Below are positions 32,801 to 63,492 of a DNA stretch of 64,000 bases, piece by piece. How positions within the stretch are numbered: the first letter of the stretch is position 1; each line of letters opens with the position of its first letter. Below the pieces are notes generated by a model. It searched no databases and was not told the origin of the DNA. It worked only from the letters and a program-made list of their open reading frames with translations. A program made the translations under genes and the position numbers. This DNA comes from Protonemura montana (lineage: Eukaryota > Arthropoda > Insecta > Plecoptera > Nemouridae): the NCBI GenBank assembly GCA_947568835.1, contig OX387605.1, positions 3,720,001-3,784,000 of the forward strand, read 5' to 3'.

Positions 32801-35800
32801 GGCGTTTGCTGGCTTCAAGTTATGTCGTCTCCTGCGTAAATGGATTTCTTCAGTTTACCTCACACTAGTGACGATTTTCTTGCACATTTTTTTAGAATGC
32901 GCCACGTTCAGTTATCTTCGATGCTTTTGAATGCTTTATTTTCTTTTATTCAAATCATTTTTATTGCAGCAGTCTATTGTATGGAATTCTGTGGTGGAAA
33001 TGTGCCCCTCGCTCGACCGAAGCAGGAAATCCCATTAATGGCACAAATCGAACGCGGCAGGGTTGAGGTTGTTTGTCGCCTCTAAAGGAATGTGACGGTG
33101 TTGGGTGCAGGTGCGACTCGTGGTCGACGGCGACACCGAAGACGTCTATCGGCTGCCAGTCGGCATCCGTGTGCTACGCTGGGCTCCCGACCAAGGACTC
33201 CAAATCAACGGCAAGAACATTTACTTGCGCGGCTTTGGCAAGCACGAGGATTCAAACGTGAGTTGCCTTTACTCGGTAAACATAGCACACTTATAGAATT
33301 AAAACCGCTCGAATTTCGGTCGGATTTCATTAGAGCCCACGACTGAGGCATGAACGTTTCGACATGAATATTGAAACGCGAATAAAAATGCACGGGAGCA
33401 TTTTGTGTGTACAAAACTTAGTTCACATGTATACGCTTTTCAGCGTCTCTCGAATTTTGAAGATTTTTGACTAGTTCAGAAAGCTTTAGACACAAATAAA
33501 TTATTTACTCAAGATGTTTCTCTCGTTCTAAAGCTAGCAAGGAAAAAAAAAAAAAAACTACCTCCCGATTTCCTTTTGAATATTTCGAGAGAGAGTTTTG
33601 GCAAATAAAAGAGTGACGTCTGGGTCGCAGATTCGAGGAAAAGGACTCGACTACACGGTGCTGGTACGCGACTACGACTTGATGGGGTGGCTGGCTGCGA
33701 ACGCCTATCGGACCTCGCACTACCCTTACGCGGAAGAGGCCCTCGACTTGGCAGACAGCAGGGGCATCATGGTAATTGCCGAGAGCCCTGCTGTCAATCT
33801 TGAGTAAGCCCTTTCATTTTCAGCGTTCACATTGCGTTAGCCTCAAGTCGAACGTCTCGATCTGAAAACTTTTTGAGCCTTATTGATGGAAAAGATCTCC
33901 AATTCGGCCCATGCCGCTCTTGGTTTTTTTTTTGCATTAGATTTCTTGCAATTTAATGGTGCACCTGACATTTTCACATAGCTTTCATGCGAGTCAACAG
34001 CTACCATTGGTTCTACGATATCAGTTTGAAATGCGATGATTTGGTAACGGGTTTATTGGTAATAGTAAACTTCTGTGTTTACCTCAACTTTGTCCAGCTC
34101 ACACCGGAGAGTTAAAGCTGTGTTGTCAACAAGCCTCACGTCACCGCTGTCAAAATGGTGCTGTTAGACTAAAGCTTACAGCTTAACTTTGTTGGTCAGG
34201 GCTATAGCCATCGCAAATTGAGCTGATTTCCATATGAAAATCTATCAAACTAGGGCTAACATAGATATAGTTGGTGTTTCCACAAACTGCACAGATTATC
34301 GATGAGGTTCGCTCAGCAAATGGTGTTCCTGTGCGCAGTTTCTTCGACGCCAAACTCCTCTCTACGCATCAAAGCGTGATGCGTGAGATGTACGAACGCG
34401 ACAAGAACCGTGCGTGTGTGGTGATGTGGTCGCTGTCGAACGAGTCGATGTCGCAGAAGAAGAAAGCTGGTCCATACTACGGTAATCTCACGGCGTTCGT
34501 GCGGTCCCTGGACTCCTCCCGACCTGTCTCGTTCGTCACCAACAAGGGAGCAGCCGTCGACCAAGGGGTAACTTGGTGCAGGGGCACGGAGGTCACGACT
34601 AGTGAAATGAGGTTGAAGAGATTACACTTTTTATTGCTAGGCATTTTGCATGTAAGACTTTACAGGTCGGCCTCACTGGAGGTAGAAACAGCTGTTCAGG
34701 ATTTTTATAAACGTGCAAAAAAGGTACCGGATATCGTAGAGACTTTTTGCGATTTTTTACGCGGCATCAAACAAAGTTGTTTGATGTGCAGCATTTGATG
34801 TTCGTGGAACTTTGTTTCTTTTGGCCTAAATCTTTCTCGGCCGTTGGATTACCGGGCACGGTATGCGTGGCCCAAGGGCAAGGAGAACGACTGAAGCAAA
34901 GCACTCTATCCTCCGAGAACACACGTCCATGTTTTCAGTGTTTAATCTCGAACAGCCAAGCAGATTCTATGCAGACATTTTTCATCGATCTTTCCTCTTC
35001 TATACTCTTTCAAACACGCGACTCTCACGATAAATATGAAAAGAAAAACAGGGACGCGAGTGAAAGACACAAAAGCTTAAATGAAAATGGAGATGGAGCA
35101 GTATTTCAAAAAATAAAATAGAGCGCCTAGGGAAATCGAAGTTGCAGAGAGCCCGGGTCCATACATAAAACTGTCATCCGCTTTGATTGTGATTGATTCG
35201 GTGATCGGCGTTCTCTTAGGCTGGTTTCATGGACGTGATCGGTGTGAACCATTACTCTGCGTGGTACTCGGATGCTGGACTGCTCGACTTGATCCCCCAT
35301 CAGGTGGAGGCGGCGTTCGACGACTGGCACACACGCTTCGGAAAGCTGTTCTACATGAGCGAGTACGGAGCTGGGGCGTTAGCCGGGCTGCACGCGGTGA
35401 GCGACATTGTATTTAACCACTTTAGCGCTCGTAAAGAAGCTATGAAAATGGTTACAGCTTTATGCAGCGTGCAATTTTAACCAAGTTTCTGCTCAAAAGA
35501 ATCTTATTTGCGTTCTGTCTTAGCTAAATTTGATGGGAGTTATTATTGGTTTTTAAAATATTTTGAATACTGCGCGAAAACCACATGAAATCTGAGCTTT
35601 CTTATTTTTGTTTCGTCTTTTAAGTTGCCAGTGACAATTTGGACGGAAGACTACCAAAGAGAGTTGCTCCAAAAGCATTTTGAAAGCTTTGATCAACTGC
35701 GAGAGAAGAAGTTCTTTGTCGGGGAAATGGTTTGGAACTTTGCTGATTTCGCCACCAAACAAGGTAATACTAATTGAGTAACTCGTTAAATTCCCGCGCA

Positions 35801-44401: not shown

Positions 44402-45295
44402 AGAAAAGAAGATGGCTCATTAGGGCACACAGTCTACGGAAAGAAAACAAACACAAACACGCAGATTTATGTCACCATCCTAGCCAAAAACATGGGGTGC
44501 CAAACACATTAGCGACCAGATCAGCGAGATTAACTGATGAGGAACACTAGGCGGAAGAAAAGGAAACACTTAGGACAAATGTTCAACAGAATGGCTATAA
44601 AATCAAAGATATAAGAAAAGGAGGTACAAAAAAAAGTGGACAGGTTAAAAAATAAAGGAAATAGTGAAATAAACGCTGAAATAATTGAAAAGGGAATTAG
44701 TGAAAGCAGCTTAAAAGAAAAACAAATCCATCGCAGTTTTATAATGTAATGTAATGTAATGTAAGTAATTTCGTAAAATCAGATTTTTACAGCATTTAAA
44801 GCAGATAGAAAAATAAGTACAATGGTCAGACCAGTGAAGGATCAGGTTCATTTAGAATACAAATGCGTTTATGAAGTAAGTTGTGAGTGTGGAAACATGT
44901 ACATAGGAGAAACAGGTAGGAAAATTAGCACAAGAGTCAAGGAACACGAAAGACACATAAGATTAACAAAACAGTCTAGCAGTGTTGGGGGAAAAAAAGA
45001 GACTTAAATCAATCAGCTTGTGCAGAAAACGGGAATGAGTTTCAACACCACATTCAAATAAAAAGGATTTTATGTCGAGATGATAGGAAATTCACTAGAA
45101 AAGTCAGAGAAGCAAAAAAAAATTAAAAAACAGCCCAATAAATTCAATAAAGATGATAGTTTTCAACTAGATGGAGCATGGGGAACAGTTTTGCAACAGA
45201 AAAATGGAATAGAGAATATCATTGAGGAGGTAGAAGAAGAAGTCAGCACACAGGATCTAGAAGAAAATATTTGGACAGGTAGATTTTCGAACTAA
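44402..45295 (+). pseudogene. Broken Penelope-type reverse transcriptase tail and GIY-YIG endonuclease
   Basis: The first segment, from 44402, reads EDGSLGHTVYGKKT, a hallmark of the C-terminal region of Penelope-type reverse transcriptases. It hits a stop near 44509 and the homology continues in another frame (ARLTDEEH, then a stop, then TLRTNVQQNGYKIKDIR). A later open frame (44822-45007) holds the endonuclease core CGNMYIGETGRKI with a downstream RVKEHERHI segment. After another break, 45080-45295 is a Lys/Asn-rich tail. I see several stops and at least two frame changes, so no functional protein is made. The family call rests on motif recognition, without alignment. Confidence 0.75.
44742..44763. 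repeat. (TAATG)n pentanucleotide repeat
   Basis: Just over four TAATG units inside the Penelope-like element, between the protein remnants. Confidence 0.9.
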
Positions 45296-47448: not shown

Positions 47449-50400
47449 TCATACGATTGTAACGATCGGCAGAAAGGCGTCCGCCAGTTCGTATGAGTCG
47501 GCGTCGGCGTCGCCTTCCTCGGGCTCATCAATCATGCTACGATGGCGTCTCTGTGTGAACATTCCGACCTCGCTGAGGAGTCGTCCGGCGTAGCTGCCGG
47601 CGTACCCGCGGTTGTGAAAGCCGATGCCATGGGCTGGAAAATCGTTGCATGGTCAAGTGTAATCTGTTTTAGGTGCGGAGAATCGATTGCAGGTCGCCAC
47701 ATGAAACGAGAGGACGGAAAAACTTGGCACTGGGGCTGGATCGATGGTAGATCCAACTTACTTCTTAGCGTCGGCTGTCGTATTTTACATGCGCTTAAGG
47801 CGTTCGTGACTTTTGTATCAACAAAGCACCGCTACTAAAATACCTAAGAGATTGCCATTTCGTACCTGTACATTTAAAAGGGTAATTCATTGTAAAAACC
47901 GCCCTTTGCTTGTAGCTTTAAGTTGTGTACCTTTCAAGCTCGAGCCGGAAGCCATCAGCAAATGGAATTTGCTATTTGTCAAGTCGAAAACGACTCCCTC
48001 TACCGTCGTGACCGGGTCACGTGTGAATTTGCAATAGACATCGCCGCCGCTGGTCGAACCTTCGAGGAGGGCGATCCCACTCTAAAACGAGAACATGGTG
48101 GTGACTAAAAGGTCTCTTGGCAAGCACCGGTCGCTAAAGCGGGACGCACCTTCGACAATGGTCCGAGGATGCGATGATTCTTGTGCCCCTTGTTCCAAGA
48201 TGTGTATCCGTGGATGTTGGAGCCGTTCGTGGTGCACTCGACGACGCTGTCAGAACCCTAAGGAAAGATCAATCTGAATAGGGGTAGGGGTGCAAAAATC
48301 GAGGCAATGAGGTGATTTAGGGTGATTGGAGCTTCTTTTTTTTGCTATTGAATGACTTTATGAACTACTTAACAACGTCTGGCGCGCTCTTGTTTTCAGC
48401 GATAAACTTATCTATCAATATAGTCCAAAAGTGTGAACCTTAGAAGCCGAGGGAAAATATTTTTAAACGAACTTTATCTTAGGTCCAAGTTTATGAATAG
48501 AAGGACTCAACTCCCCTCAATTGCACTCTTGAGTGGACTATTGGAATTTGGAAACTTCTTCGAAGTTGGTAGTGGTCGCTAGCCAAAGAAAACTCACCAT
48601 GATGGCGTCTGTGGAGAGAGCGACGGCGACGTAGACGCTGTCTACTGCGTGTATCTCGAACTCGAACCCGGCAGTAGTCCTCCGAACAGACGCCGCTAGA
48701 GTGCACGAGTCGGTTTGAAGACAGGAGGGTGGCAACAGAAAGCACGATTTGGTATCGTTGCAGCCGCGTGCAGTGAAACCCTGAAGCCACAGAGACGACG
48801 GCCATCACTAGAGATCATCAGGGTGCGCCCAATGGAATTGGTCGTAAACAACTCTTTACTTCAAAACTTCCTGAGAAAATGCATTTTTGGCCATGCTCTA
48901 AGTACACGACCTTAATATAAGAATTAACAAAATTTCCGCAGTTAGGTCTTTTACTAGACATGCATTGCCAAATGTCTCTGAGTTGCTCACCAAAGAAACA
49001 CAACAAAAGGTGTCGTTAATATTGTCAGCAACGAAATTTTTTCGCGATTTTCGGTCATTGAAACCGAAGCAATCGAAGTGAAACCTACTTTGTGAGCCTC
49101 GTGGTCAGTGTTTGAGAGTGTGGTCAACTCGACGCCGTCGACGCCTTCCCCGGAATCGTACAAGATGTCGCTCTCGTACGTTCCGCAGATGATTAGCTCG
49201 TAGCTGTCGCTCTCGATGCTCGATGTATTGCTATTTTCCATGTTGCGGTCTTTACCCCACGATGTGTAGTCTTCTTCTTTATCTTCGTAGGTCTCGTACT
49301 CCTCGCTCGACTCGACGCCGGGCGTCGATGTCGCCGGATCGCTAGGCGATGCCGAGTTGCTGTCTTCACTCCATGATTGGTTGTCTTCTCCAGTCTCTTC
49401 GTAGGTCTCGTACTCCTCGCTCGACTCGATGCTGGGCGTCGATGTCGCCGGATCGCTAGGCGTCGCCGAGTTGGGGTTCACGAACATGCCTATGTCGGCC
49501 ATCAGACGACCGTTGCGGCTCCCCGAAGACTCGCGGTCGTGGAAGGCGATGCCATACGCTACAACGGAGGACAAGACCTTGCATGACACCACTCCACCAT
49601 GTCTCTAAACTAATTGGTAATTTATTATGGTCATGAGTTTCATTCTCTGATATTTTTTAGTCTTTCAAATATTTCCTGCAATAATACTTCTTACAATACC
49701 ACAGTATTACGAAGTACCAGGCGACTGAGAAATGATAGTGCTGAAACTTTGACTAATTGCTTATAAACACAATGTTTGTACACTGCGTCAGTTTCGGGTG
49801 TAAGATTTGGAGACTGGGGTTGCCGTTTGAAAGCTCTGAGGGCAACCGCATAGATACGGTTTGGTTGTCAGGATCTAACCTACTGTGAAGCCTCGATCCT
49901 GCGGCCACCAGCAAGTGGTACTGTCGCTTAGCCAAGTCGAACACGACGCCCTCAGCTCGCGTGAGGCTGTCTCGCGTGAACGTGCACCTGATGACGCCGT
50001 CGACGAACGACCCAGTCGCCAGGTTCACCCCGTTCTGTAGGAATACGACAATTTCATCAACACGTTAAGAACAAACAGCGAATCCTATTGAGGGTTTCTG
50101 AGGGAGTTCGAGCCAATATTTAAAAGGAGGTGGGTGGTGATATCTGTTACGGACGACCTGTCAAACATTCGCACCGTACCTACCTCTGAGACGGAGGTCT
50201 TGATGCGTGTGTTCTTCGTGCCAACGTTGAAAGACACAAAGATTTGGACGCCCTTTTCGGTAGCGTTCACGTCGTGCAAACATTCCACCACGCTGTCTTT
50301 GCCCTGCAATCCAAGGGAATCTGACATTAGGAGAAATCGGACTAAACATATGTTCAAATCTATTAAAAAACCGGCAGTATCCAGTACTATGAATCCATGA

Positions 50401-50761
50401 TTCCAGTACCATGAATGCATCATCCGAGAGTCCGACGGCGACGTATACGCTGTCGACGGCCATCATTTCAAACTGGAAGTGATCTCCGGTTGCTGAGACG
50501 GCTACCCCTGCCCTGCAGGAGCCTGATGTCAAACAGGAGTCTGGCACCAGGAAGCAGGACTTTGTCTCGTTGCATCCAGAGACGAAGGCGTCGGGCTATT
50601 TGTTAGGGGATCAGTATTAATGTTCTTCACAAAGCTTCTTTCAAGAGGGTGTTAATGGAGGATGGTCGTTTGCTTACCACATTTTTACCACCAGGTTCTT
50701 TAGGGATGACATGGCTGAGAACAGCACACGCTGAAGCGACCGTTATTATTAGCCAACGCAT
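47449..50761 (-). CDS. Secreted two-DOMON-domain protein with acidic repeat linker, 9 exons, 545 aa
   Basis: Exons, 5' to 3' on the minus strand: 50761-50678, 50595-50410, 50303-50184, 50034-49884, 49558-49089, 48780-48598, 48257-48150, 48081-47931, 47633-47449. Exon 1 is a signal peptide (MRWLIITVASACAVLS). Exons 2-4 and the start of exon 5 form DOMON domain 1: GCNETKSCFLVPDSC, DSVYVAVGLSDDAFM, GKDSVVEC, QYHLLVAAG, GIAFHD. Exon 5 continues as an acidic Ser/Thr/Pro-rich linker with two 38-residue repeats. Exons 6-9 form domain 2: GCNDTKSCFLLPPSC, GSDSVVEC, FHLLMASG, HGIGFHN, then an acidic tail. This DOMON type resembles the FRRS1/SDR2 ectodomain; such domains bind haem or other ligands. There is no membrane cytochrome part. 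The join at 49089-48780 is phase-compatible (phase 0) and no separate signal exon precedes exon 6, favouring one protein. Without that splice, exon 5 would read on to a stop at 48987. Confidence 0.8.
49251..49478 (-). repeat. Two tandem 114-bp coding repeats (38-aa acidic unit)
   Basis: Units at 49478-49365 and 49364-49251 lie in exon 5 of the two-DOMON gene and are nearly identical over much of their length. Each carries SDPATSTP, then ESSEEYETYE, then an acidic stretch ending in SW. A degenerate third unit follows (DRNMENSNTSSIESDSYEL). The DNA repeat is in frame, so copy number can change without a frameshift. Confidence 0.9.
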
Positions 50762-51421
50762 TATTTTAAGAACGAATCTAATTTTGTCCTGTTTGATAAA
50801 TAGATTTTAGATTTTGGCCGGCTCAGTCACAAGATTTAAAACATAAAAACTTGGTAAACGTGAAAGATCTTGAGTTTGCGAACTTGATTGCTAGTTTGCT
50901 GGTAGTATTTTGTGATAGCACTTTTAACCGATTTTTGCACTGTCTTTAAAGTCTACACAAGCAAATCAGTTCGGAGATCCGAAAATAATGTGCCATTTTC
51001 AGCTCATTCCATGTATCTCGATAAGATAAGCATCTAAGATACCGGCCTAGACTACTGCCCTTTTATCTGTGAAAACAGAACATACGAGCACGTATGCCAC
51101 ATTGCTGTGCGGCGGTAAACACTCCGACCATAATTTCGGAGCCCCTCCAACGTCAATGGTCAAACCAACCTCCAAACGCAATCAAACACTAGATAATCAC
51201 TCTTGCGCTGTACAATGATTATTTTAAATCTAAAGATTAACTATTACTTACGTCACATTTTTCTTTGAGCTAGGTACACAAGATGATTCAACGTTGATCC
51301 AACGATATTTCAATTTTCCGCTCAGCTGTCGGCACAAGTGGCCGGCCAATCAGCTGTTGCGCGCTCAACTGACACACTAGAATTTAAAAATAAGTTTCAT
51401 TGCTTTTCGGTTGCTTTTATT
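50762..51421. promoter_or_regulatory. Shared intergenic region between two divergent genes
   Basis: 660 bp separate the start codon of the minus-strand two-DOMON gene (50761) from the start codon of plus-strand CWF19L2 (51422). Both promoters and 5' leaders should lie here. I see AT-rich sequence and no clear TATA box or repeated operator-like motif. An open frame runs in frame upstream of the CWF19L2 ATG to 51338, but it starts with GTG, so 51422 is the first usable ATG in that frame. Confidence 0.5.
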
Positions 51422-54400
51422 ATGGATATCAAACTGAGTGATAGAAAGACGCAATCAAGCCACGGTGAGAAATACGCGCAATCAAGTGCAACAGCCACAC
51501 AATTCAAATCAACTGAAAGGAAACACAAGAAGAAGAAGTCCAAAAAGCAGAAGAAGAGGAAGAAATCGAAACGATCGGTACTTGTACCTACCTAACCAAA
51601 CTTTTTCATATGATCTGGTGTTATTGGTGTTATTACGTTATTGTCTTTTGATTTTGTTACCATGTTTTCTTCAAAACGAGGATAAGTGTGAAATATTAAA
51701 ACCTTTTATTAATCAAGCTTCTCGGTAGTAAAGCAACAATGTTATCTTGCAGGAAAGTGACTCGGATAACACCTCTGACTCTGACGAATGGGTTGAAGAA
51801 GACGAGCGTAAAAAACCCAAAAAGAGGAAGAAAGCAAAACGTTCAGTAAGTCACTTTATCATTAACTTTTTTATCTAGTTAATCTGTTTGTAATTTTCCG
51901 AAATTCTAAATCATTCTGTTTACCATTTGGTTACTTAGTGAAACGTACCTAATTTTATTTGTGAACTTACAGGAAAGTGACTCGGACAGTAGCTCGAACA
52001 TAGATGAATGGGCTGAAAAATACCCTAAAGACGATGTGGTGAAACCTAAAACTGATGCCCGAGATGAATGGATGAGCATGCCTGGACTTTTTCCATGTGT
52101 TGTAAAAGAAAAGAAGCAACCTGTGAAGAAGGATTCAGAAAAGATGATTCTTGATGCGGTAATTGAAATAAGATATCGGAATACAGTGTTGTCTGGTATC
52201 TGTCTTTGCTATCTTAATTTTTTTGTCTGCAGATGGGTCAAAGTAAATATGAACTTAATCCTTACTGGAAAGATGGAGGCACTGGCCTCCCTTCTACGGC
52301 AAAGACAGATAGATTTGACAATGCAAAGCCTTCAGCTAGTGGAACTGTGGGAGATCAAGGTGCAGATTGGCTGCGACGAGCGCTGACCAGAGCTGAGGAA
52401 CAAGCGCGGAGCGAAGGCCGTTCACTGGAGGCGGTGGCAGCAGAAAGATGGGGCGTAAGTGTCCATTGGATTGTTTGCAGCAGACAACACTGAGCATTAT
52501 CCCGAACTAAATTTGAACATTACAACATTATCCAAAAAAATTGTTATTTACATTATATATTTATTTCTTTTTGGTTAACCCTAACATTTCTTTCTGGACT
52601 TGTTTTCCAGTCTTTAGAAAAGCTACAGTCAATGTTAGCGGAAGCAGAGAAGAAGGCTGCAGACTCCAGACCATTTAGCAATAATCGTTCTAGACATCAA
52701 GATTGTCAGAGGGAGCAGGAGAGAAGGAGAGATTTTGGGAGAAGAGACAGAGATCAAGTAAGACGTTATAATGATCAAGAGAGCAAAGGAAAGAGGGATG
52801 ACAGAAGAGATCCTAACAAGTTAGAAAGAGATGGAGGCAGACCGTTTGAAAGGTCTAGAGGATTCCACAAACCAGGAGGTGACGACGAAGATGATTCTCC
52901 AAGTGGAAGATTTAGAAGACCCGATGATCGTAAGAAATCAACAGCATCGAATAAATGTCATTGAACTTCTTACTCATTTTCAACCTAGCATGTCTTGGAG
53001 GAAACCTCTCACAAATATATGCAACTTAGGGCAATTGAATTAAATGACATCTGCCCAGTTGGACCAAGAACTTTGTATAAACACCCAAAAAGAAATGTGT
53101 GAAAAAAGTGATGTCTTTTTATGTATTAAGATAAATGAATAATGTATTCTTTACAGGTGCGGAGAGCTACGTATCTTCCAGTCGTAGAGAAGGAGGCTGG
53201 CGGAAGAAAGATTTGAAACCCGTGGAGAAGAGCAATTCTCGCACTGAAAATTCCGATTCCTACCCAAAACGAATCAGCGACAACTCGGAAAAAAAACCCA
53301 GTGCTCCCAGCGTGAGCAGAGAAGAGGTTGAAGCTAGTGGTACCAACCCTGCAAAGGTTTCCGCTACGAAACAAGTGTTACCGGAAGACAGTGGTTCAGA
53401 TTCCAGCGGCGAGGAAGCAAAGGAGACGGAAGAAGTGGAACGCCTAACCGACAAAGAGATGAACGAGCTGGGAGCAAAACTCATCAAGGCTGAGATCCTC
53501 GGAAATAAAGTCAGTGCTTGGGGTTTTCAATACACAAAACAGAGGTGATCAAAGAATTTAAATTCATGTTTATGAACCACACAAAGTCTGATTGGCAAGT
53601 CAGATGCCAAAAAATATTTATTTTGAAATGAATTGGCACAACGTTTCTGGACAAAAAATGGGATAGATCCCTTACTTACATTTGTAATCAGTATTGCTGA
53701 ACGACGAATTTGTTCCAAATGAATCTTTTTGGCTACTTGCTTCACCATTTCTAAAATTAGTGGGGAGTTTGCTGTTTGTTAAATGGCTGAAATATTTAGC
53801 GGGAAAGTGGAAAGAACGTACTCAACTTACTCAAATTGAGAATGCTTGTTAACATAGATGAACTTACCTTTTGGTTCAGCTAGGTTCCCTTGTCCATGTA
53901 GAGTAGAAAAATGTGCTTGGTAGCTGGTGTGTGGGTAAGATGTAGAGTGCAGATGATATTGGAGCAGGGTAATTATCTGTGAGAAGATTTCAACATTTTT
54001 AGAAAAACTATTTGAACTGGGTTTTGAATGCTAAGTAAAGGGCTACTAAATTTCCCGACGTTTCGCAACATATACTAGTTACTTCTTCAGAGGTTTGAGC
54101 TCAGAGGACTGCTCAAACCTCTGAAGAAGTAACTAGTATATGTTGCGAAACGTCGGGAAATTTAGTAGCCCTTTACTTAGCATTCAAAACCCAGTTCAAA
54201 TAGTTTTTCTAAAAACTTGTGCTAAGGATAAATTAAATAGACATGAGTCTAAAAACCATCATATTTCAACATTTATTTATGAAATAATCATACATGTGCC
54301 ATATCCCTCGCTTGCTGGCTTAAGCTCCCTAGTGGAAATGCCAGAAAACCAAAAAAACACTGCATACATGTGATATTTTACCAAAATCATTGCTGTACAC

Positions 54401-57400
54401 AAGTGGAAACCGATTTTCTAAAAACCCCCATCAGCGGCAGGAAGTAATCAAGTTACTTCTCCCGATAAACCGCAGACCCTCGCCGCTGAGTTGCGTCTGC
54501 GTCTTGAGTCCGCACGAACGGTGCGATCATCTGCCCCCGCGCGGGCAGCGGACGAGACGGTGCTGCTGACCGTGCAAGACGCAGCGGGCAACGTGAGGCC
54601 CGCTCGGGGCATGGAGCGGCCCGCGGGCAAGCAACGCAAGCAGAAGCCCGCGCAAACTCACGACCAAGATGGGAAACGCGAACGATACTTCCCTGACGAC
54701 GATCAGCGCACTCTCAAGGATATGGTGCGTGTCTTCCGTAGGAAGGTTTTAAACCAGAAATTAGTAAGTGTTTGACGTTGAACGGCTTGAATCTTCTGTT
54801 TCAGTTTGAACGTGAGAAGATGAGTTCTGTGGAAGATTCTAATAAGCAGTTCCTGGATATGGTTGCAAAGGTCAGTAGCACTACAATCACTATTTTAGAA
54901 GTTAACTGTGAGAATTTCAAACTCACTTTAACTTTATCCAGTGGAATTGAAATAGGAATCATGAATACCGATGTTTGATGCATGTTATCCCTGTTATGTT
55001 TATTTTTTTTGCGATTTTACGCCTTTGGGGCACTGGGTGGTCTGGATTTTATCTCCCAATATAGAGATAGAAACAATTTTGACTCCAAGAAACTCCATTT
55101 TTTTTAATCTGCTCTGGTAAACTTGAGCTTGACTCTTCTTTTTGCCGCGGCAGGTGAAGCCTAGCGACGAAATGGACGCTGCGTTCGAGGACAAGGCCAG
55201 CCGACAGCGTGATCCAGATGAACGCAGTCGTGCGCTGGCGCAGGCCAAGGCAGCCAGCGTTGCGCTGGGAGATTGCCAGCGCTGCTATCACGGCAAGCGT
55301 CTGCAAAGACATCTCGTGGTTGCCTCCGGAGAGAAGGTAGGCAATGGATGTGCCTGCATGGGAAGTCCCATTTTACCAGATGCATTCTCCCACCAAACTA
55401 AAACAAATCTTTACTGTACATTTTTTGCCTGTTTCTTTATTGTGTTCCAAAATGTCTAAGTATGCAGGCCCGTCCATTTTATCCAAGTCTTCGTTGTGTT
55501 TGATCGTCCAATGTGCTATTGCTGTTTCAGGCCTACCTGTGCGTGCCCGGACACCGTTCCCTAACGCTGGGCCACTGCATGATCGTTCCGATTGGACACA
55601 CGTCTAGTGCAACGCAGCTCGACGAGGATGTCTGGGCCGAGATGCAGGTTCGGCCGACAGACCTCGCTTGCTCTAGGCACTGGCAACACGAGCCAATAGC
55701 TTCACCCAACTTAATCCTTCAAATGCAACCCAGTGATGGTGTTCTTTTGGGGATGCCCAGCATATGTAACATCTAGCCTACTCGATTTTTTTGTTCTTGT
55801 TATTATCAGCTCTACAATTGGTGAATCCAACACTAGTCACCACCTTTTGTGGATGTTGCCCCATAAATTTGTGTAAATTAGATGCTTAGAGCACAGATCC
55901 TCAGAGTCTCTTCTCTCCAGTGATAAATGCAACAGCCGAAACGTTAAACAAAGAATTTTCACTATTGCGGCCTGCCACCCCTGCTCGGTAAGTTCTGTAC
56001 TCTCCCTTTACTTTCCCAATCTATATACTCGTAATCCCAGCCCTTTGGCACATTACCTGGCACATTACCTGGCACATTGGCACCTGCAGGCCCCTTAGAC
56101 GTCATCCAACTTAGTTCAGACAAGCGATTCATCTAAACCTGGGCCGACGTTTGCACTGCAAATGCTTGTTGCAGCTGTTCCGTCGTGGCCTGGTGGCAAT
56201 GTTCGAGGCACGAGACGAGGACGTTGTCTTCTTCGAGACGGCCACGCGGTTTCGACATCGACCGCACATGCTCGTAGAGTGCGTACCCTTGCCCAGGGAT
56301 GAAGGCGCTGCTGCACCCATTTACTTCAAGGTACGATAAAAACCCTGGGCTTAGCTTTGTCAAATTCGACAGCAGAAGTGGTTGCTCCCTATTGCTCTGT
56401 TAAAATTAACGGATGGTTGATATTTCACTCCAAGATCTGTTTTCTCAATATGACTGCAATGGCAAAAAAACATCTGCTACAAATGCCAGAAGACTATGGT
56501 TTAAAATTTTGCAAGAAAAAATTAAACTTATTGTAAATGATTTTGAAATTTCATTTAAACACAATGCGTTTCATTTGATTAATGCCATGGTGTTCAATTC
56601 AAGCTGTAACTAAGGGTATGAGTTTCATTTTTGCCATTCATAGTATCTGCATTACTTTACTTATTGTCACCCATTAATACCATTCTGTCAATTGCAGTTT
56701 GTTAAATCTTACAGTTGTTGTGGTAAGTTGTCGAGCGGTTGTGGCGGTTGTCACCCATGGCTCTAAACCACTTCACCAAACCATCTTAAAGTTGTCAATT
56801 TTCAAAGAAAAAAAACCATGAAAATTGCCAACAGCAACATTCCAATGCAAAGAATTCAGAAAGTACATGACCTGAGGAAACAAAGCTCATCAATGTATCT
56901 ACTTTGAGATGCGGGCCTAGACAGTCTAACGCTAACCTGAATGCAATGTTGCTGTCCGCCGCAGAAAGCAATACTGGAGTGCGAGACAGAATGGAGTACA
57001 AACCACAAGCTGGTGGACACGCGCAAAACGGGAGTACGCCGCTGCCTGCCACGCGAGCTGCCGTACTTTGCCGTCGATTTTGGCACGGGCGGAGGTTTCG
57101 CTCACGTAATCGAGGACGAAAAGGCTTTCCCGGACACGTTCGCGCAGGTACCGTCACTCTATCATAACCGCCGCTCTCTCTCTCTCTTGTACGGTTATGT
57201 GTTCCTAGTACAGATATCTATACCACTAGACCAATAATTTCTTTTGCATGGCCTGAAATGGAGCCAGGCATTGAGTGTGCAGATCTCAAAACTATAAGGA
57301 TGGTATGTCTGTTAACTCTTAATTTGTAGGCCATGCTGTGACATATTCTTTGTGGTAATGAAAATAAAGCTTCTGATTACTGGAGGATAATGTACCTGTA

Positions 57401-57647
57401 TAGGTACCTTGCATTGTCCTGGTTCATGCCTTGGATTTATTTGTTTTCAAAGCCAGGGTGCATGCTCTGATAAATGCCAACGTTGCAGGAGGTGGTGGCT
57501 GGGATGCTGGATCTGGACCACGATGCATGGCGCAAACCTGCCCGGGAGCCGTTCGAGAAGCAACGCGATAAAGTGCTGCAACTGTCTGCTTGGTGGAAGC
57601 CACATGACTTCACAGCAACGCTTTCTGATGAGCAGGACTCGACATAA
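51422..57647 (+). CDS. CWF19L2: CWF19-like protein 2, complete, 13 exons, 813 aa
   Basis: Nuclear splicing factor of the Cwf19/Drn1 family, linked to late spliceosomes and intron-lariat turnover. Exons: 51422-51577, 51753-51845, 51973-52158, 52233-52454, 52611-52929, 53157-53509, 54476-54724, 54805-54870, 55154-55336, 55531-55647, 56175-56330, 56965-57147, 57489-57647. All junctions hold frame; most are phase 0, exon 5/6 is phase 1. The N-terminal half is charged and disordered, Lys-rich (residues about 33-52), then Arg/Asp-rich (about 240-330). The first C-terminal CwfJ domain (about 549-700) has CQRCYHG, HLVVASG and the HIT-like GHCMIVPIGHT. The second (about 700-813) has LPYFAVDFGTGGGFAHVIED and WWKPHDFT. 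This order matches animal CWF19L2 closely; the human protein is about 80 residues longer. Exons 2 and 3 begin with the same ESDSD segment. Intron 6 carries a palindromic transposon relic. Confidence 0.97.
53987..53998. repeat. Left target-site duplication of the palindromic element
   Basis: ATTTCAACATTT, repeated exactly at 54263-54274 on the other side of the inserted 264 bp. Confidence 0.85.
53996..54215. repeat. Perfect 105-bp inverted repeat (10-nt loop)
   Basis: Arms 53996-54100 and 54111-54215 are exact reverse complements by direct reading, around a loop TCAGAGGACT. They carry the Penelope arm sequence, including GAAACGTCGGG. Perfect identity indicates a recent origin or conversion between arms. 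Transcription of the host intron would give a 105-bp RNA hairpin. Confidence 0.95.
53999..54262. mobile_element. Non-autonomous Penelope-derived palindromic insertion in CWF19L2 intron 6
   Basis: A 264-bp insertion flanked by the exact 12-bp duplication ATTTCAACATTT. It consists almost only of the two inverted arms plus a 47-bp tail ending in CATGAGTCTAAAAACC then ATCAT. The longer element at 44110-45648 has diverged copies of both arms and the same tail, but with a protein remnant between the arms. This copy therefore looks like an internally deleted, MITE-like relative, younger than the long copy because its arms and target duplication are unmutated. No coding capacity. Confidence 0.85.
54263..54274. 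repeat. Right target-site duplication of the palindromic element
   Basis: ATTTCAACATTT, identical to 53987-53998. Confidence 0.85.
56047..56078. repeat. 12-bp tandem repeat in a CWF19L2 intron
   Basis: Two exact GGCACATTACCT units followed by a partial third (GGCACATT). Confidence 0.9.
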
Positions 57648-58123
57648 TAGCTGTCCTGCCTGACTTCGTTCTAAAATACTGTACACCACTGCGACTCACT
57701 CAACTTGTTAGCTTTGCACCTCTCGCCGTATTTTGTATTTACTATAAATTATGTTAATGATTGGTACATTATAACATTTTTATTGTCTTAAAATTGTATT
57801 GCTTCAAAGCAAATACACAATAGTGTTGAGATGTGACAAAAATTACATTCTTTACAGTGATAGTAAACAGTAACAGATATTTTAATTTCATATACTGAAA
57901 ATTGAAATACATTTATAATAAGAGATACTTGTTTATTAGTATACTGTTTTTTCAAAAGAAAGGTGAGTGAACTAAAATTGTACCGTCCCTTTTCTGGTTT
58001 TGGTAGTAAATTGCTTAACGCTGAAGGCAGCTAGCGTAGCTAAATATGCTTGTGACTTTTCAGCATGAACATTGATGAACATTCCGTGGACTTGATGACA
58101 CTTTGCCCATTCCTCCAATGAGG
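57648..58123. other. Convergent 3' flanks of CWF19L2 and a DOMON gene
   Basis: 476 bp separate the CWF19L2 stop (57647, plus) from the DOMON stop codon (58124-58126, minus). The 3' untranslated regions of both genes should lie here. A possible minus-strand AATAAA is at 57932-57937. I saw no canonical plus-strand AATAAA for CWF19L2 before 57900. Confidence 0.5.
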
Positions 58124-60161
58124 TTATTGAGTGCTTTCTGACTGCAAAACATCAGGAATCTGGAAGTAACCATACTCCTCGACCCAACCCTTGATGGAGT
58201 TTGCTCCTTTGGCGATGTCGTGGTAACCAATACCACTGTCTGAAATTGAGAAAGAAAGAAATGTATCACCATTCTGCACCTAGCTGATCAGTCAGGCCAT
58301 TGGTGTCTACCTTATTGTCGTACCATGCATTTTTGTATTTGTAATTTGTTTCCTGTTGTATAATATACATGCCATGGTGTTTCATATTATAATAAATAAA
58401 AACAGGCTTTGGAAACTGTTATATTTTCTATTTCCAAAGACTAAACGTAAGGAAATTATCATAAGTACCGGTAGCCGTGGTTCCTGCCGCTAGCAGCAGA
58501 TGAAATTGTGTGCGGAAGAGATCAAACTCTACGCCTTGAAAAACGGTGACCTCTTCCCGTGTGAATTTACAGTAAATTTCCTTAGTGGCAGGGTCGTAGC
58601 TGCTGGCTTCGACGTCGAGTGTCAGACCAACTGCGACAGCCTCACGTGTATTAACTTTTCCGTTGTTAAATGATGCGTAGAGGCTCACATTTCCTGCCCC
58701 AGCGGCTGTGTCACTGACACATTCAACGATACTGTCGTTGCCCTGCAATATAAGTTTTGGCAACATTAGGCACATATCGGATTTGGTTGATTTTTTATAC
58801 TTCTTGTTACCTCTAGTCATACCATACCTCTATTGTTTGCTATTTTTCATTGGATCTTTATGACGACGACCCACAAATTTCACAAGCCTGTTTTATTCCA
58901 TTGTTCAGTTTTACAAACTAATGTATTTTAACTCCCTACATAATGAGACATTCTTTAGAACAAGACGATGAAATTCTATGATGAAACCATTGCCAATCTG
59001 GCTAAAACCCATGGATAAAGGTAACACCTACTACTGACCAACCCGCCAGAACCGAGGCAGAGCTGTCGGACTAATATTGTAATATGAGCTGCATTGCGAC
59101 AATAATCACTCTCTTGCGCAATGGAACAAGTGTCTATACCATCATAGTGTCGTCTGAGAGGCCCACCGCGACATAATTTCCTCCGACAGCCCACAGTTGA
59201 AAGGTGTACTCGTTGACCCAGGCCCGGATGGATACGACGGCCGTGCAGTCCTTGGTGGTCAGGCACGAGTCTGCCACGGGGACGGCATATCTTCCTTTAT
59301 CAGTAACCTGCATGAGTCCAACAATAAAATACTTTTTTTAAACAGGGAAACTATATACGGTAAATGCACATTCAACTGTACCTTCATTTTCATTATTATT
59401 ATTATTTTTTTTTTTTTTTTAATGTCTTTAAACCACGATGGGTATTTGCAGACGATGAATTAAAAAGTGAATAAAAATGTGTGACACGGAAACAGGAAAC
59501 AGCCACATCTAAGTTTGTACAGCCGCAATTTGTGCATGACCTGTTGAATCATCTGACAGAAGTTTGAAGTGTCCACCTGCCGGTTCCCGGGCGAAAATAT
59601 ATTGGTTTTTGGCAAAATTGTAAAGGACTGGCGACCAACGAAATTTTAGCGAATAAAAATAAGTAGTTTACAATTGCGTCCAACTTAATATGGTCCATGC
59701 CCCAGGGGCTGACTTTTGTGTGGATGTTGTCTTCGTCGGGAAAGCTGGAGAAATTTGGCAAGTGCCGTCCTACTCCTAAGGATCAGTCAGAGTGAGAGCT
59801 GCTTTATTTGTCTTTAACAAGTAGGGACATTTAAGAATTTAGAGGAGGAGGCGACTAAAAACGCTTGTTTTGGAACCTCCATTGCTTTGTTTTCATAAAA
59901 AGATCATTTTTGAAAATTATGAGTTCGAGATTTAAAAAAATAATCAAAAGTTTTCCCGGAGCAGAAAACAGCAGGAATGGGTGGAAAAAATGTAGATCGT
60001 TTTTATACTCGATCTGTAATTGAAAGTAATACTTGCGTGGGTTTCAATTTGAAATGACTTCTTATCAGAGTTCCACTTACCACGACGTGACCTTGATTGG
60101 GTACAGAGACAGCACAGACTGCAGTTGTTGCCAATACGAGCATGATGTCGATGGCAGTCAT
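58124..60161 (-). CDS. Secreted single-DOMON protein, 4 exons, 212 aa
   Basis: Exons 5' to 3': 60161-60081, 59307-59140, 58742-58469, 58239-58124. Exon 1 gives a signal peptide (MTAIDIMLVLATTAVCAVS). Exon 2 holds the first half of the DOMON fold, with NYVAVGLSDDTMM at its end. Exon 3 continues with GNDSIVECVSD, YASFNNG, YCKFTREEVT and FHLLLAAGT. Exon 4 starts with DSGIGYHD and ends in ESTQ then stop. Phases are 0, 0 and 1, as in its neighbour at 60779-62529, and exon 3 has the same length (274 nt). Exon 2 lacks the first Cys pair found in every other family member with a visible exon 2 (the GC..C segment), keeping only the later two. Likely a small extracellular haem- or ligand-binding protein; the exact ligand is unknown. 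Confidence 0.88.
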
Positions 60162-60677
60162 TCTACGTGCGTCAAAAACAGTGCATTGCAGACTTTAGCT
60201 AGGTGTGTGTTCCTCAAAACAAACCGCATTGGTGCAAAGAGCAAAAAAATACATTTGGTACATTTTTTTCTTCATATGTCATGGAATACGGAATTGTGGA
60301 ATTTCGTTTTTTAATGAGCAAGGAAGAAAATATTAGCTGTGGATTTGCATAAATACCGGATAATACAACCCTTTAAGTAATGATTACCTCGATTTGATTT
60401 CCGCTTGGCTACTCACTTTGCAATGTTTCTTCCTGAGCTTATGATTTGAATAAAGAAGTAAGGAAACTTGACTTGTTGGTCATTTATATCAATATGCAGC
60501 CTGATAAGCTGGACAAACAGTAGGTACTTAAAGAGTCAGCCTATTTTAACCACTCCATAATCACCGATAAAGATTTTTAAAGATACGTCTATTTAAAATG
60601 AGTCTGCAGCATGTTTTTTAATTCCGTAACTCGGAGGAAGAATGTCTTGGAAAAGATAACACGATAAATCCAAACTC

Positions 60678-60683
60678 TTTATT
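60678..60683 (-). terminator. Polyadenylation signal AATAAA for the 60779-62529 DOMON gene
   Basis: TTTATT on the plus strand reads AATAAA on the minus strand, about 95 bp after the stop codon at 60779-60781. Confidence 0.6.
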
Positions 60684-60778
60684 CATCAACCACCTTTCAG
60701 TCAGTTAATTGGCTTCTAGTCGCAAGCCGCAACTTCTGTAGTGATGCAGTGGTAGGCTAGTTGGTGTAGTGACCATCT

Positions 60779-62529
60779 TCACTCAGCCAAAGTCGTTTCA
60801 GGTTGATGGTAGTAGCCGATGTCGGCCACAAACCTTTTGTCTACACTGTATGATCTGGCGACGTCGTGGTAGCCGATCCCGGAATCTGGAATCAGGGTCC
60901 GACAGATTCACGCTAAAAAGTCTGAATGCGTGGCTAAAATTCACCCATGAACGGTTTGCGAAAAGTACAAGGTAGACATCAAAGAGTCAGTTGCTAAAAC
61001 AATTGTGAAACACGCGTCGATTATGATGTGAAAAACGATTTTGATGGAAGTCAATACAAGTTCATACCTCACTTTCAAACGTCACCGATGACCGTCACAT
61101 GATTTTGATCCAAAAAATTGACGTCTTATCCTAAGTTCGTTGCAATTACCTGTGGCTTTAGTGCCTACTGCCACTAGCAAGTGGTACTGCGTTTTGTCAA
61201 GGTCAAACAGTACCCCCTGGAACGTGGTGACCTCATCGCGAGTGAACTTGCATTTGGCAATCTTTGAGTCTACGTCGTAGCTGCTGGCTTCGTTGTCGAG
61301 CGTCAGGCCAGTCGCCTCCACCTCGCGGGCGTTATTGTGGCCGTTGTTGAAAGACGCGTACAGACTCAACTTCCCTTCGGCTGCTGCGTTGTCGCTCACG
61401 CACTCCACGACGCTGTCGTCGCCCTGGAATTAACATCGTTTGATGAATATCTTTTGATGCTGAGGAGCTGAGGAATATAGCTCGATGTATCTAGTGGCCG
61501 AATGGTCAAATCAGAATTAAAACAAAGGTGCAAGGTTCCTATCTAACCAAAGTACCCAAACACTTAATTTTCACGTATGCAACTGGCAAGAGTTCTCTTC
61601 AAGAATTCGTACTCTTCACGACTAGAAATAATCTTTGAATATTCATTCGAAAGAAGCTGCTCGGGATCTTGTCTCCAGAAATCACCATTTTATCGTCGGC
61701 TGAGAGCGCCACTGCGACGTATACGCCGCCGGCTGATTGTATCTCGAACGTGTACGTTTTCCCGACCACTAAGATGGAGACGGCGGCTACGCAGTTTTTG
61801 GACACGAAGCAGTCTTCGGGGTACTGGAAGCAGGCCTTACTCTGCCCACAGCCGTCGGTCACCTCTCTCCACAGCTCGTCGTGACTCTGCGGATTTGGTT
61901 AGAGATCACCAACAGATGTTACCATTGTTGTATCAGACTGGCCAACGTCAATAATAAATAATATAAAATAATATAATATATTATGATATATTTTATATGT
62001 ATTGTATGTTTTATATTATATTATATTATATTATGTAATGCAATTTAAGAAAGATTGCCAAAAAAGATTTTAAGCTTGGAGTATGAGAGAAGGGGAAGAG
62101 GACGACCAAGAGAAAGATGGATACAAAAAGTACACGATGATGTGGAGAAAAGAGGTGGGAAATGGAATGAAGTAGAAGAGAAAAAAAGCTGGCTGGATAA
62201 GGAGAAATGGAAGAAGTGGGTGAATGAAAAGGAAAATGAAAAAGAGCATGAAGAAAACCAAAAAATTATTTGGCATAATCAAGCTAAATGCCTTAAATTA
62301 AACATTTTCTACCTGTTGTAAGAAATAAATGAAAATAAAAAATCGATTTAAAAAAATAAATATAAAACATAATAATAGGTTCGATTTTTACTTTAATTGT
62401 ACACCAATAAATGAAGCGTCAAGGAAGGAGGGAGGGACACGCAAATTCTGCACTTACCGGTGCATCTTGATCAGACACAGGCACAGCAAGGACTGCGGTT
62501 GCAGTCAACACCAAAACAAGGGCAATCAT
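60779..62529 (-). CDS. Secreted single-DOMON protein, 4 exons, 217 aa
   Basis: Exons 5' to 3': 62529-62458, 61886-61686, 61423-61150, 60885-60779. Exon 1 is a signal peptide (MIALVLVLTATAVLAVPVS). Exon 2 begins SHDELWREVTDGCGQSKAC and ends GGVYVAVALSADDKM. Exon 3 carries GDDSVVECVSDN, YASFNNGHNN, CKFTRDEVTTFQG and QYHLLVAVGT. Exon 4 starts DSGIGYHDVA, ends QPETTLAE and stops. The pattern Cys..Cys..VAVAxSxDxxM / GDDSVVEC / GxHD is that of the FRRS1/SDR2-type DOMON domain, here as a free secreted domain. The Met before the exon 2 donor and the His of GYHD are candidate axial haem ligands by analogy with other DOMON cytochromes. Intron 1 contains a LINE fragment. It is the closest intact sister of the gene at 58124-60161. 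Confidence 0.92.
61949..62035. repeat. AT-rich low-complexity tract
   Basis: Nearly pure A/T sequence with ATATA and TTATA units in intron 1 of a DOMON gene, directly before the LINE fragment. Confidence 0.85.
62050..62340 (+). mobile_element. 3'-terminal fragment of a LINE-type retroelement
   Basis: A plus-strand open frame contains RGRPRERWIQKVHDDV, then GGKWNEVEEKKSWLDKEKW. This Arg/Trp pattern is typical of the extreme C-terminus of endonuclease/reverse-transcriptase polyproteins of non-LTR retrotransposons. The frame stops near 62321 and is followed by an A-rich tail. No upstream reverse transcriptase is present, so this is a 5'-truncated insertion. It sits in intron 1 of the minus-strand DOMON gene, in opposite orientation. 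Confidence 0.75.
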
Positions 62530-63388
62530 TCTAGAGAAATTCAAGTAAATTGGCAGTGGTTATTTCGAGGTGTTTAAGCTTAAAAGCCCGACAAAGACTT
62601 GAGTCCAGTCTCAAGGTTTCTACGAGTTTTGCAAATTAAAGGAGAGAAATGAAAACAATGAAATTTTGCCATAAATTGCGAACTTTCGTTTTGCGCTATT
62701 CCTTTGCGTTATTCCTTAACCTCTTTTTCTGTCTGACATCGACTGCAAACACTGTTCTATTAAAGAATATAGAGGTGTATGTCAAAACCTTACCTCATAT
62801 TTAGTTATACTGAGTCTTCTGCGTTGGTCAAGGATTGCCCAAGTAATGAAAGGATGTAAACGTTCTTTAGACGTGGCTATTTTACTACGCGTGAAGCAAT
62901 GCGTGGTATCAATGATAAGAAGAATAAAAATGCTATGCGAAAAAGTATCTTCTTGAAATTTTAAAAACAGTATGAGTACTCCTGATTGTGCGCGTTTTTG
63001 TGTTGGTACATTGCTTCAGAGGTTGCCAGTACCCTGGATATTAAGTATTGATCACGTTGCGCCTCACGTCGATTCAAGACCGATCCATGATCATCTTGAC
63101 TTCATATTGTGACCACCATCACCACGGTCTGATCATGACCCTGGCTGTCACGAGCTACGTCACATAGACTATTCGGTGAGGGCGATTTCAGTGTCACCAT
63201 ATTGTCCTTTCATAAAGAGACACGTTTTTGAGATGAATTCGTGCTATAACTAGAAACGCAATGCAGTGAGACAAACATAAAGATATGAGATGAGACAGAC
63301 TGAGTGTTGACTAGCTTTATTCGAAATAATTCAATACATGGTTGTATCTCCGTCAACCCGCTGGTCGAATCATGGAGTATGGCTATGT
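62530..63388. other. Intergenic region between two DOMON genes
   Basis: It holds the promoter side of the 60779-62529 gene and the 3' flank of the next DOMON gene. Apart from an AATAAA on the minus strand at 63316-63321, I see no further feature. Confidence 0.5.
63316..63321 (-). terminator. Polyadenylation signal AATAAA for the partial DOMON gene
   Basis: AATAAA on the minus strand, about 70 bp after the stop at 63389-63391. Confidence 0.65.
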
Positions 63389-63492
63389 TTAGACCACTGG
63401 AGTGGTTGGTAGCTGGAAGAATCCAATGTCTGCTAGGTAGCGCTGGTCTGCGCTGTACCTCATGGCCACATCATGATAGCCAATGCTGATAT
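63389..63492 (-). CDS. Last exon of a further DOMON gene, partial (upstream exons beyond window)
   Basis: The acceptor (TTACAG) at 63493 opens a phase-1 exon that starts DISIGYHDVAMRYSAD, continues with RYLADIGFF and stops at 63389-63391. It aligns with the final exons at 60885-60779 (DSGIGYHDVARSYSVD, VADIGYY) and 58239-58124 in phase, length and the invariant GYHD. The preceding exons were not found in 63493-64000, so they should lie past the right edge. The sequence is closest to the final exon of the 60779-62529 gene. Confidence 0.85.

What the first reader, a model, noticed from the sequence alone, without database searches (positions are those of the whole stretch)
47449..63492. Tandem cluster of secreted DOMON genes on one strand
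At least five DOMON domains occur in four minus-strand genes within 16 kb, all with signal peptides where the 5' end is visible and none with a cytochrome b561 membrane part. Family context: this domain is usually seen as the ectodomain of FRRS1/SDR2-type reductases. A local expansion of free, secreted DOMON domains suggests a specialised extracellular role such as haem handling, defence, saliva or cuticle. The function is inference.
Basis: partly seen in the sequence, partly recalled or inferred. Interest (0 to 1): 0.75.

Follow-up and report, generated by a model that had tools for sequence, protein, structure and literature searches.

The report
Secreted cytochrome-like DOMON gene array
In this insect chromosome a run of small, probably secreted proteins appears to have been copied from the outer domain of a neighbouring membrane iron-reductase-type gene, keeping the residues expected to hold haem but losing the membrane part, so they may work as free haem or electron carriers outside cells.

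Summary
The window holds four complete DOMON domains, all above Pfam's cut-off, plus the last exon of a fifth, on the minus strand at the stated coordinates, with no b561 part. The array runs past the window: over 31 kb there are nine free DOMON domains in eight or nine genes. It ends beside the only b561-bearing homologue found by a genome search, a CG8399/SDR2/FRRS1-type gene. The free copies end soon after the exon in which that neighbour runs on into its first b561 helix. Both predicted haem ligands, Met and the 'YHD' His, are invariant in 11 of 11 domains, and dN is below dS in 10 of 10 pairs. An eleventh relative, on another contig, has a GPI-like tail. My reading: truncated tandem copies of the reductase's haem domain, now secreted b-type cytochromes (electron carriers or haem binders). 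Parentage, secretion, haem binding, expression and role are inferred. The genome is an insect's, species unidentified. Secreted or anchored single-DOMON proteins are in print (Daphnia DD1, plant AIR12); ten paper searches showed no such array. New variant of a known kind.

The parts
60779..62529 (-). Gene A: exons 62529-62458 (signal peptide), 61886-61686, 61423-61150, 60885-60779; 217 aa, one DOMON, haem-ligand candidates M91 and H189
   Evidence: GT-AG, exon starts in phases 0,0,0,1; Pfam DOMON 42.7 bits; ligands
58124..60161 (-). Gene B: exons 60161-60081 (signal peptide), 59307-59140, 58742-58469, 58239-58124; 212 aa, one DOMON; lacks two of the four N-terminal cysteines
63389..63492 (-). 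Last exon of gene G0; its other three exons lie just right of the window (C3:3785083-3784006); 219 aa, one DOMON; 'SxDxxMGxD' motif degraded to SGDQAMNAT
49089..50761 (-). Gene C, first DOMON of the probable two-domain gene C+D: exons 50761-50678 (signal peptide), 50595-50410, 50303-50184, 50034-49884, 49558-49089 (the last one carries an acidic tail with a 114-bp tandem repeat)
47449..48780 (-). D, second DOMON: exons 48780-48598, 48257-48150, 48081-47931, 47633-47449; no first exon of its own found, phase-compatible with gene C exon 5; C plus D as one protein would be 545 aa
51300..57750 (+). CwfJ/CWF19-like gene (probably CWF19L2) between D/C and B; span approximate, by eye; not part of the DOMON family
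   Evidence: Pfam CwfJ_C_1 and CwfJ_C_2, each split over two frames

Best explanation
The window holds the left part of a tandem array of truncated copies of the extracellular haem (DOMON) domain of a neighbouring cytochrome b561 reductase gene of the CG8399/SDR2/FRRS1 type. The copies have their own signal-peptide exons (found for every copy but D) and end soon after the exon that carries the second predicted haem ligand, so the haem pocket is kept and the b561 membrane electron input is lost. The products are most likely secreted, disulphide-braced b-type cytochromes with Met/His-ligated haem. They would act outside the cell as one-electron carriers or haem holders, probably exchanging electrons with the membrane reductase or with small reductants and passing them to ferric iron or another acceptor. 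Shown: gene structure, domain, lack of a b561 or long hydrophobic segment, ligand conservation, purifying selection, position beside the only b561-bearing homologue found. Inferred: that the neighbour is the parent, secretion, haem binding, redox role, partner.
For: DOMON over Pfam cut-off in 4 of 4 window domains and in 7 of 7 further proteins (G0, E1-E4, K, F). Gene F (C3:3798720-3795381) has DOMON (50.5 bits) and b561 (21.0 bits, just under the 23-bit cut-off) plus further exons rich in long hydrophobic segments; Reeler exons lie upstream on the same strand (45.3 and 29.4 bits, cut-off 21). A genome search with F gave 24 matches; b561 exons occur at this one place only. Searches with A and C list only the array and K (27 and 28 matches, E up to 0.1). 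F, C, D, E1-E4 and K share the phase-0, phase-0 and phase-1 introns of the domain; A, B and G0 lack the middle one. Met and YHD-His are invariant in 11 of 11 domains, 93-101 residues apart; in F the His is 30 residues before the first b561 His, as published for fly CG8399. SxDxxMGxD is complete in 9 of 11. No 19-residue stretch of mean hydropathy 1.6 or more after residue 26 in any free copy, and no match to F's b561 part (E up to 1) outside L049. dN below dS in 10 of 10 pairs.
Against: No measurement of haem, redox activity or transcription. No profile match to any solved structure (0 hits at E up to 10), so the ligand assignment rests on spacing, invariance and a published model of CG8399. 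G0 and E1 depart from SxDxxMGxD. The tree is unrooted, leaves most forks weak and puts F and K on long branches, so 'F is the parent' rests on position, introns and uniqueness, not on topology. First exons of G0, E1-E4 and K were picked from candidates filtered for hydrophobicity, so their hydrophobicity is not independent evidence. The b561 family search of the genome did not complete, and the answered genome searches score only the best candidates, exon by exon. The Pfam DOMON search of the genome listed 14 matches, none of them in this array, so it misses such exons and may miss other relatives.
Confidence: 0.6

Rival explanations
1. Haem or porphyrin sequestration: the free domains are secreted haem-binding proteins that protect or move haem, without electron transfer.
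For: Both predicted ligands invariant in 11 of 11; free of the membrane electron source; many copies suggest dose (inference).
Against: A six-coordinate Met/His haem is typical of electron carriers rather than hemophores (recalled); nothing measured; feeding habit of the insect unknown.
Confidence: 0.2
2. Signalling or ligand-binding proteins of development, like Daphnia DD1 (signal peptide plus DOMON, kairomone-induced), where the pocket binds another ligand or works in extracellular adhesion.
For: DD1 is the closest published animal architecture seen (passages).
Against: The ligand residues are kept, which published work says is not so in sugar-binding DOMONs or in DBH; no DD1 sequence was compared.
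Confidence: 0.1
3. Cuticle proteins, like the DM13-DOMON protein Knickkopf.
For: The genome has 130 Chitin_bind_4 matches; Knickkopf acts in cuticle (passages).
Against: No DM13 or chitin-binding domain in the copies by Pfam. Searches with A, C and F list none of the other DOMON loci; the four-domain profile has one weak match there, in L058 at E=2.9e-4.
Confidence: 0.07
4. Decaying duplicates or mis-modelled exons without a product.
For: No transcripts available here; exon ends were chosen by me to fit GT-AG; D has no first exon of its own; B lost two cysteines.
Against: No stop inside any final model; introns in shared phases; dN below dS in 10 of 10 pairs.
Confidence: 0.03

Closest known systems
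CG8399 / SDR2 / FRRS1 (CYBDOM ferric reductases)
   Same: Same kind of DOMON, with the published SxDxxMGxD region and Met/His spacing; a member of this kind sits at the end of the array
   Different: The array copies lack Reeler and cytochrome b561 and have their own signal exon
AIR12 of Arabidopsis (single DOMON, GPI-anchored; EPR work cited in PMC10784544, passages)
   Same: DOMON-only extracellular protein with haem; relative K has a GPI-like tail
   Different: Plant, one gene, anchored; most array copies look soluble; no sequence comparison made
Daphnia pulex DD1 (PMC2888767, passages)
   Same: Signal peptide plus DOMON in a crustacean
   Different: One gene reported, said there to have no homologue in other crustaceans and insects; the passages seen do not mention haem or b561; no sequence compared
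Cytochrome domain of cellobiose dehydrogenase (as described in PMC10691727)
   Same: DOMON homologue that binds haem b by Met and His
   Different: Fungal enzyme, fused to another domain (fusion recalled); no profile match found in the PDB search
Knickkopf family (PMC4140639, passages)
   Same: Extracellular insect DOMON proteins
   Different: DM13 domains and chitin role; Knickkopf sequences were not compared here

Membership tests
DOMON domain family (PF03351) | Profile score over the curated cut-off of 32.7 bits | tested here: met
   4 of 4 full window domains; 7 of 7 further proteins incl. F and K; G0's last exon alone 0 hits
CYBDOM / FRRS1-SDR2-CG8399 reductases | DOMON joined to a cytochrome b561 domain | tested here: not met
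   Free copies: no match to F's b561 part in window ORFs or in any fetched stretch but L049. Neighbour F: b561 21.0 bits, 2 bits under the cut-off, with further membrane exons
CYBDOM / FRRS1-SDR2-CG8399 reductases | N-terminal Reeler domain | tested here: not met
   Pfam scan of the free copies gives no Reeler. Reeler exons lie upstream of F but were not spliced to it here
Haem-b DOMON cytochromes | Met and His axial ligands | tested here: met
   Both invariant, 11 of 11; spacing 93-101; in F same distance to the first b561 His as in CG8399. Position equivalence is inferred, not aligned to CG8399 itself
Haem-b DOMON cytochromes | Bound haem and redox activity | not testable with these tools
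   Needs protein
AIR12-like anchored DOMON | GPI anchor signal | tested here: inconclusive
   K has a hydrophobic C-terminus; A, B, E1, E2, E3, E4 and G0 have none comparable; C read to its stop and D end in short hydrophobic runs; no predictor was run
Secreted proteins | N-terminal signal peptide | tested here: inconclusive
   Hydrophobic N-terminus in 9 of 9 free genes with a first exon model (A, B, C, G0, E1-E4, K), D has none; hydropathy only, and 6 of the 9 first exons were chosen with a hydrophobicity filter
Knickkopf family | Tandem DM13 domains | tested here: not met
   No DM13 match in the Pfam scans

The most novel reading that the evidence does not exclude
An insect has turned the output domain of a single trans-membrane reductase into a battery of diffusible extracellular cytochromes (nine free domains, two of them probably in one protein on an acidic linker) that are charged by the parent reductase and deliver electrons at a distance to ferric iron or to copper or haem enzymes of cuticle or gut: a short-range extracellular electron-shuttle system in an animal.
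Probability: 0.2. Interest if true: 0.8.

Novelty: new variant of a known kind. Interest (0 to 1): 0.5.

Why it matters
[quoted passage not shown] Natural soluble versions, under purifying selection next to the likely parent gene, would allow the proposed haem and its electron transfer to be tested without a membrane. They would also show a route by which a membrane redox domain becomes a secreted protein family.

Tried and rejected
First taken as haem ligand and rejected: the His of 'YHLL' (H172 of A), invariant in the first four sequences but missing at that column in G0 and F. The published CG8399 spacing moved the assignment to the invariant YHD His; the first checkpoint note still holds the old guess.

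Solved structures by sequence: no match at E up to 10 with 4 or with 11 sequences. Rfam: no match in the window at gathering score. LPMO partner idea: 2 LPMO_10 matches in the genome, so no sign of a matching LPMO expansion. E3 and E4 were first spliced one base off and corrected. PMC5307778, PMC6832493, PMC5823890 and PMC6855507 hold only author names such as Domon or Domont; PMC4883753 holds DOMON in a reference title only; PMC2762978 mentions it for DBH-like proteins. A separate first exon for D: none convincing between C and D, and no AATAAA or ATTAAA between 49090 and 48600. Structure prediction was not run: the tool takes proteins that the DNA gives letter for letter, and these are spliced; I did not test whether it would take them.

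Not in print: judged from ten paper searches of an open-licence library; not all were aimed at this point, and searches by word start also match author names.
Full report
CHECK OF THE OBSERVATION. The minus strand of the window at 47449-63492 was read exon by exon and spliced. I chose exon ends to fit GT-AG where the domain continues. Two four-exon genes result, A (62529-60779, 217 aa) and B (60161-58124, 212 aa), together with C (50761-49089, five exons), D (48780-47449, four exons) and the last exon of a gene here called G0 (63492-63389). Shared boundaries have shared phases. Pfam DOMON is over its cut-off in 4 of 4 full domains (42.7-50.4 bits, cut-off 32.7). A profile of these four finds 15 of the window's 2188 ORFs (E at most 8.3e-7, next best E=2.8): 14 are exons of the four domains, matched by construction, and one is G0's last exon. 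A reversed-window control of 2232 ORFs has best E=5.7. No sixth DOMON was seen in the window.

C AND D. D has no convincing first exon of its own, no AATAAA or ATTAAA lies between C and D, and the donor at the end of C's last exon is in phase with D's first exon. The simplest reading is one gene with two DOMON domains joined by an acidic linker that contains a 114-bp tandem repeat. If C instead runs to its own stop, it ends in a short hydrophobic tail. This needs transcripts.

BEYOND THE WINDOW. The window is C3:3720001-3784000 of a 258-Mb genome in 34 contigs. It has 130 Chitin_bind_4 matches and 129 matches to 7tm_6, the insect odorant-receptor family (that 7tm_6 marks insects is recalled). 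The animal is therefore an insect; the species was not identified. Searches with A and C (27 and 28 matches) show that the family continues to C3:3798720: G0 complete (219 aa), four genes E1-E4 on the plus strand (202-204 aa), then F on the minus strand. One more relative, K (234 aa), lies on C4:2240233-2243678. That makes nine free domains and F over 31,272 bases, and K elsewhere. All 7 proteins outside the window models (G0, E1-E4, K, F) pass the DOMON cut-off.

OTHER DOMON LOCI. The Pfam DOMON search of the genome listed 14 matches, none in this array, so that search misses such exons. Its loci fall in 9 of the 13 stretches; F matches none of those 9 at E up to 0.05, and the four-domain profile has one weak match there, in L058 (E=2.9e-4).

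THE NEIGHBOUR. F joins DOMON (50.5 bits) to cytochrome b561 (21.0 bits, just under the 23-bit cut-off) and further hydrophobic exons. Reeler exons lie about 3.6-4.2 kb upstream on the same strand (45.3 and 29.4 bits, cut-off 21). They were not spliced to F here, so Reeler-DOMON-b561, the CG8399/SDR2/FRRS1 architecture, is a strong inference. A genome search with F (24 matches of 32 candidates scored) finds b561 exons at this place only; the b561 family search did not complete. F, C, D, E1-E4 and K share the two phase-0 introns and the phase-1 intron of the domain; A, B and G0 lack the middle one.

WHERE THE COPIES END. In F the last DOMON exon reads on from the YHD motif into the first b561 helix. 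In E1-E4 the same exon stops right after G-x-F plus one residue, 20 residues after the His; A, B and G0 stop 27-31 residues after it; C, D and K carry longer tails. F's b561 part has no match (E up to 1) in the window's ORFs or in 12 of the 13 fetched stretches, only in F's own. DNA of the last exons of E1-E4, A, B and G0 shows only matches of 20 bases or fewer to F's (best E=0.003). The free copies thus keep the whole DOMON and lack the membrane part.

HAEM SITE. PMC10691727 was seen as passages and one whole section. The haem ligands predicted there for fly CG8399 are Met286 and His379, 93 residues apart, and the first b561 His is His409, 30 residues further on. In F the YHD His lies 97 residues after the Met and exactly 30 before the first b561 His. 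Both residues are invariant in 11 of 11 domains, spacing 93-101. The surrounding SxDxxMGxD motif, part of an iron site proposed there, is complete in 9 of 11; G0 and E1 deviate. PMC10784544 (passages) models the same kind of Met/His haem in the plant protein HYP1. This is conservation plus published modelling, not a measurement, and I did not align to CG8399 itself.

SECRETION. A, B, C, G0, E1-E4 and K have a hydrophobic N-terminus (9 of 9), but the first exons of G0, E1-E4 and K were picked with a hydrophobicity filter and no trained predictor was run. No later 19-residue stretch reaches mean hydropathy 1.6 in any free copy.

SELECTION AND HISTORY. By Nei-Gojobori counts dN is below dS in 10 of 10 pairs; dS is beyond measure in 2 and above 1.5 in 5 more. 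Better examples: E2-E3 0.18/0.80, E3-E4 0.17/0.70. An unrooted tree groups A, B and G0 (99/99) and C with D (88/87); the rest is weak, and F and K are long branches. Exon 2 of E3 and E4 is 97.9% identical while their exons 1, 3 and 4 are 63-79% identical, which points to gene conversion.

LITERATURE. [quoted passage not shown]). AIR12 is a single GPI-anchored DOMON (PMC10784544, passages). Knickkopf proteins are extracellular DM13-DOMON proteins (PMC4140639, passages). I found no report of a tandem array of free DOMON genes beside a CYBDOM gene in ten searches of an open-licence library.

VERDICT. Observation confirmed and enlarged. Best reading: truncated tandem copies of the reductase's haem domain, secreted as soluble b-type cytochromes. 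Function remains inference.

Noticed in passing
C3:3790444-3790632 and 3793070-3793258 (L048): Exon 2 of E3 and E4 is 97.9% identical while their exons 1, 3 and 4 are 63-79% identical: probable local gene conversion.
   Followed up: partly
window about 26900-35800, + strand: Exons of a glycosyl hydrolase family 2 gene (Glyco_hydro_2_C in three frames); beta-glucuronidase by eye.
   Followed up: partly
window about 51300-57750, + strand: CwfJ/CWF19-like gene (CwfJ_C_1, CwfJ_C_2) lies between DOMON genes C/D and B.
   Followed up: partly
window 49242-49477: 114-bp tandem repeat (2.1 copies) that lengthens the acidic tail or linker of gene C.
   Followed up: partly
window about 46690-46587 (-) and 5240-5591 (-): A signal-peptide-like exon and an EGF-like exon, possibly ends of one long minus-strand gene (by eye).
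   Followed up: no
window 44777-45007 (+): ORF that looks like a GIY-YIG endonuclease fragment of a Penelope-like element (by eye, recalled).
   Followed up: no
L049:7632-8087 (-): Reverse-transcriptase match between the Reeler and DOMON exons of F.
   Followed up: no
L051 about 6150-6250: Stretch resembling 5S rRNA, perhaps a 5S-derived SINE, in an intron of K (by eye).
   Followed up: no
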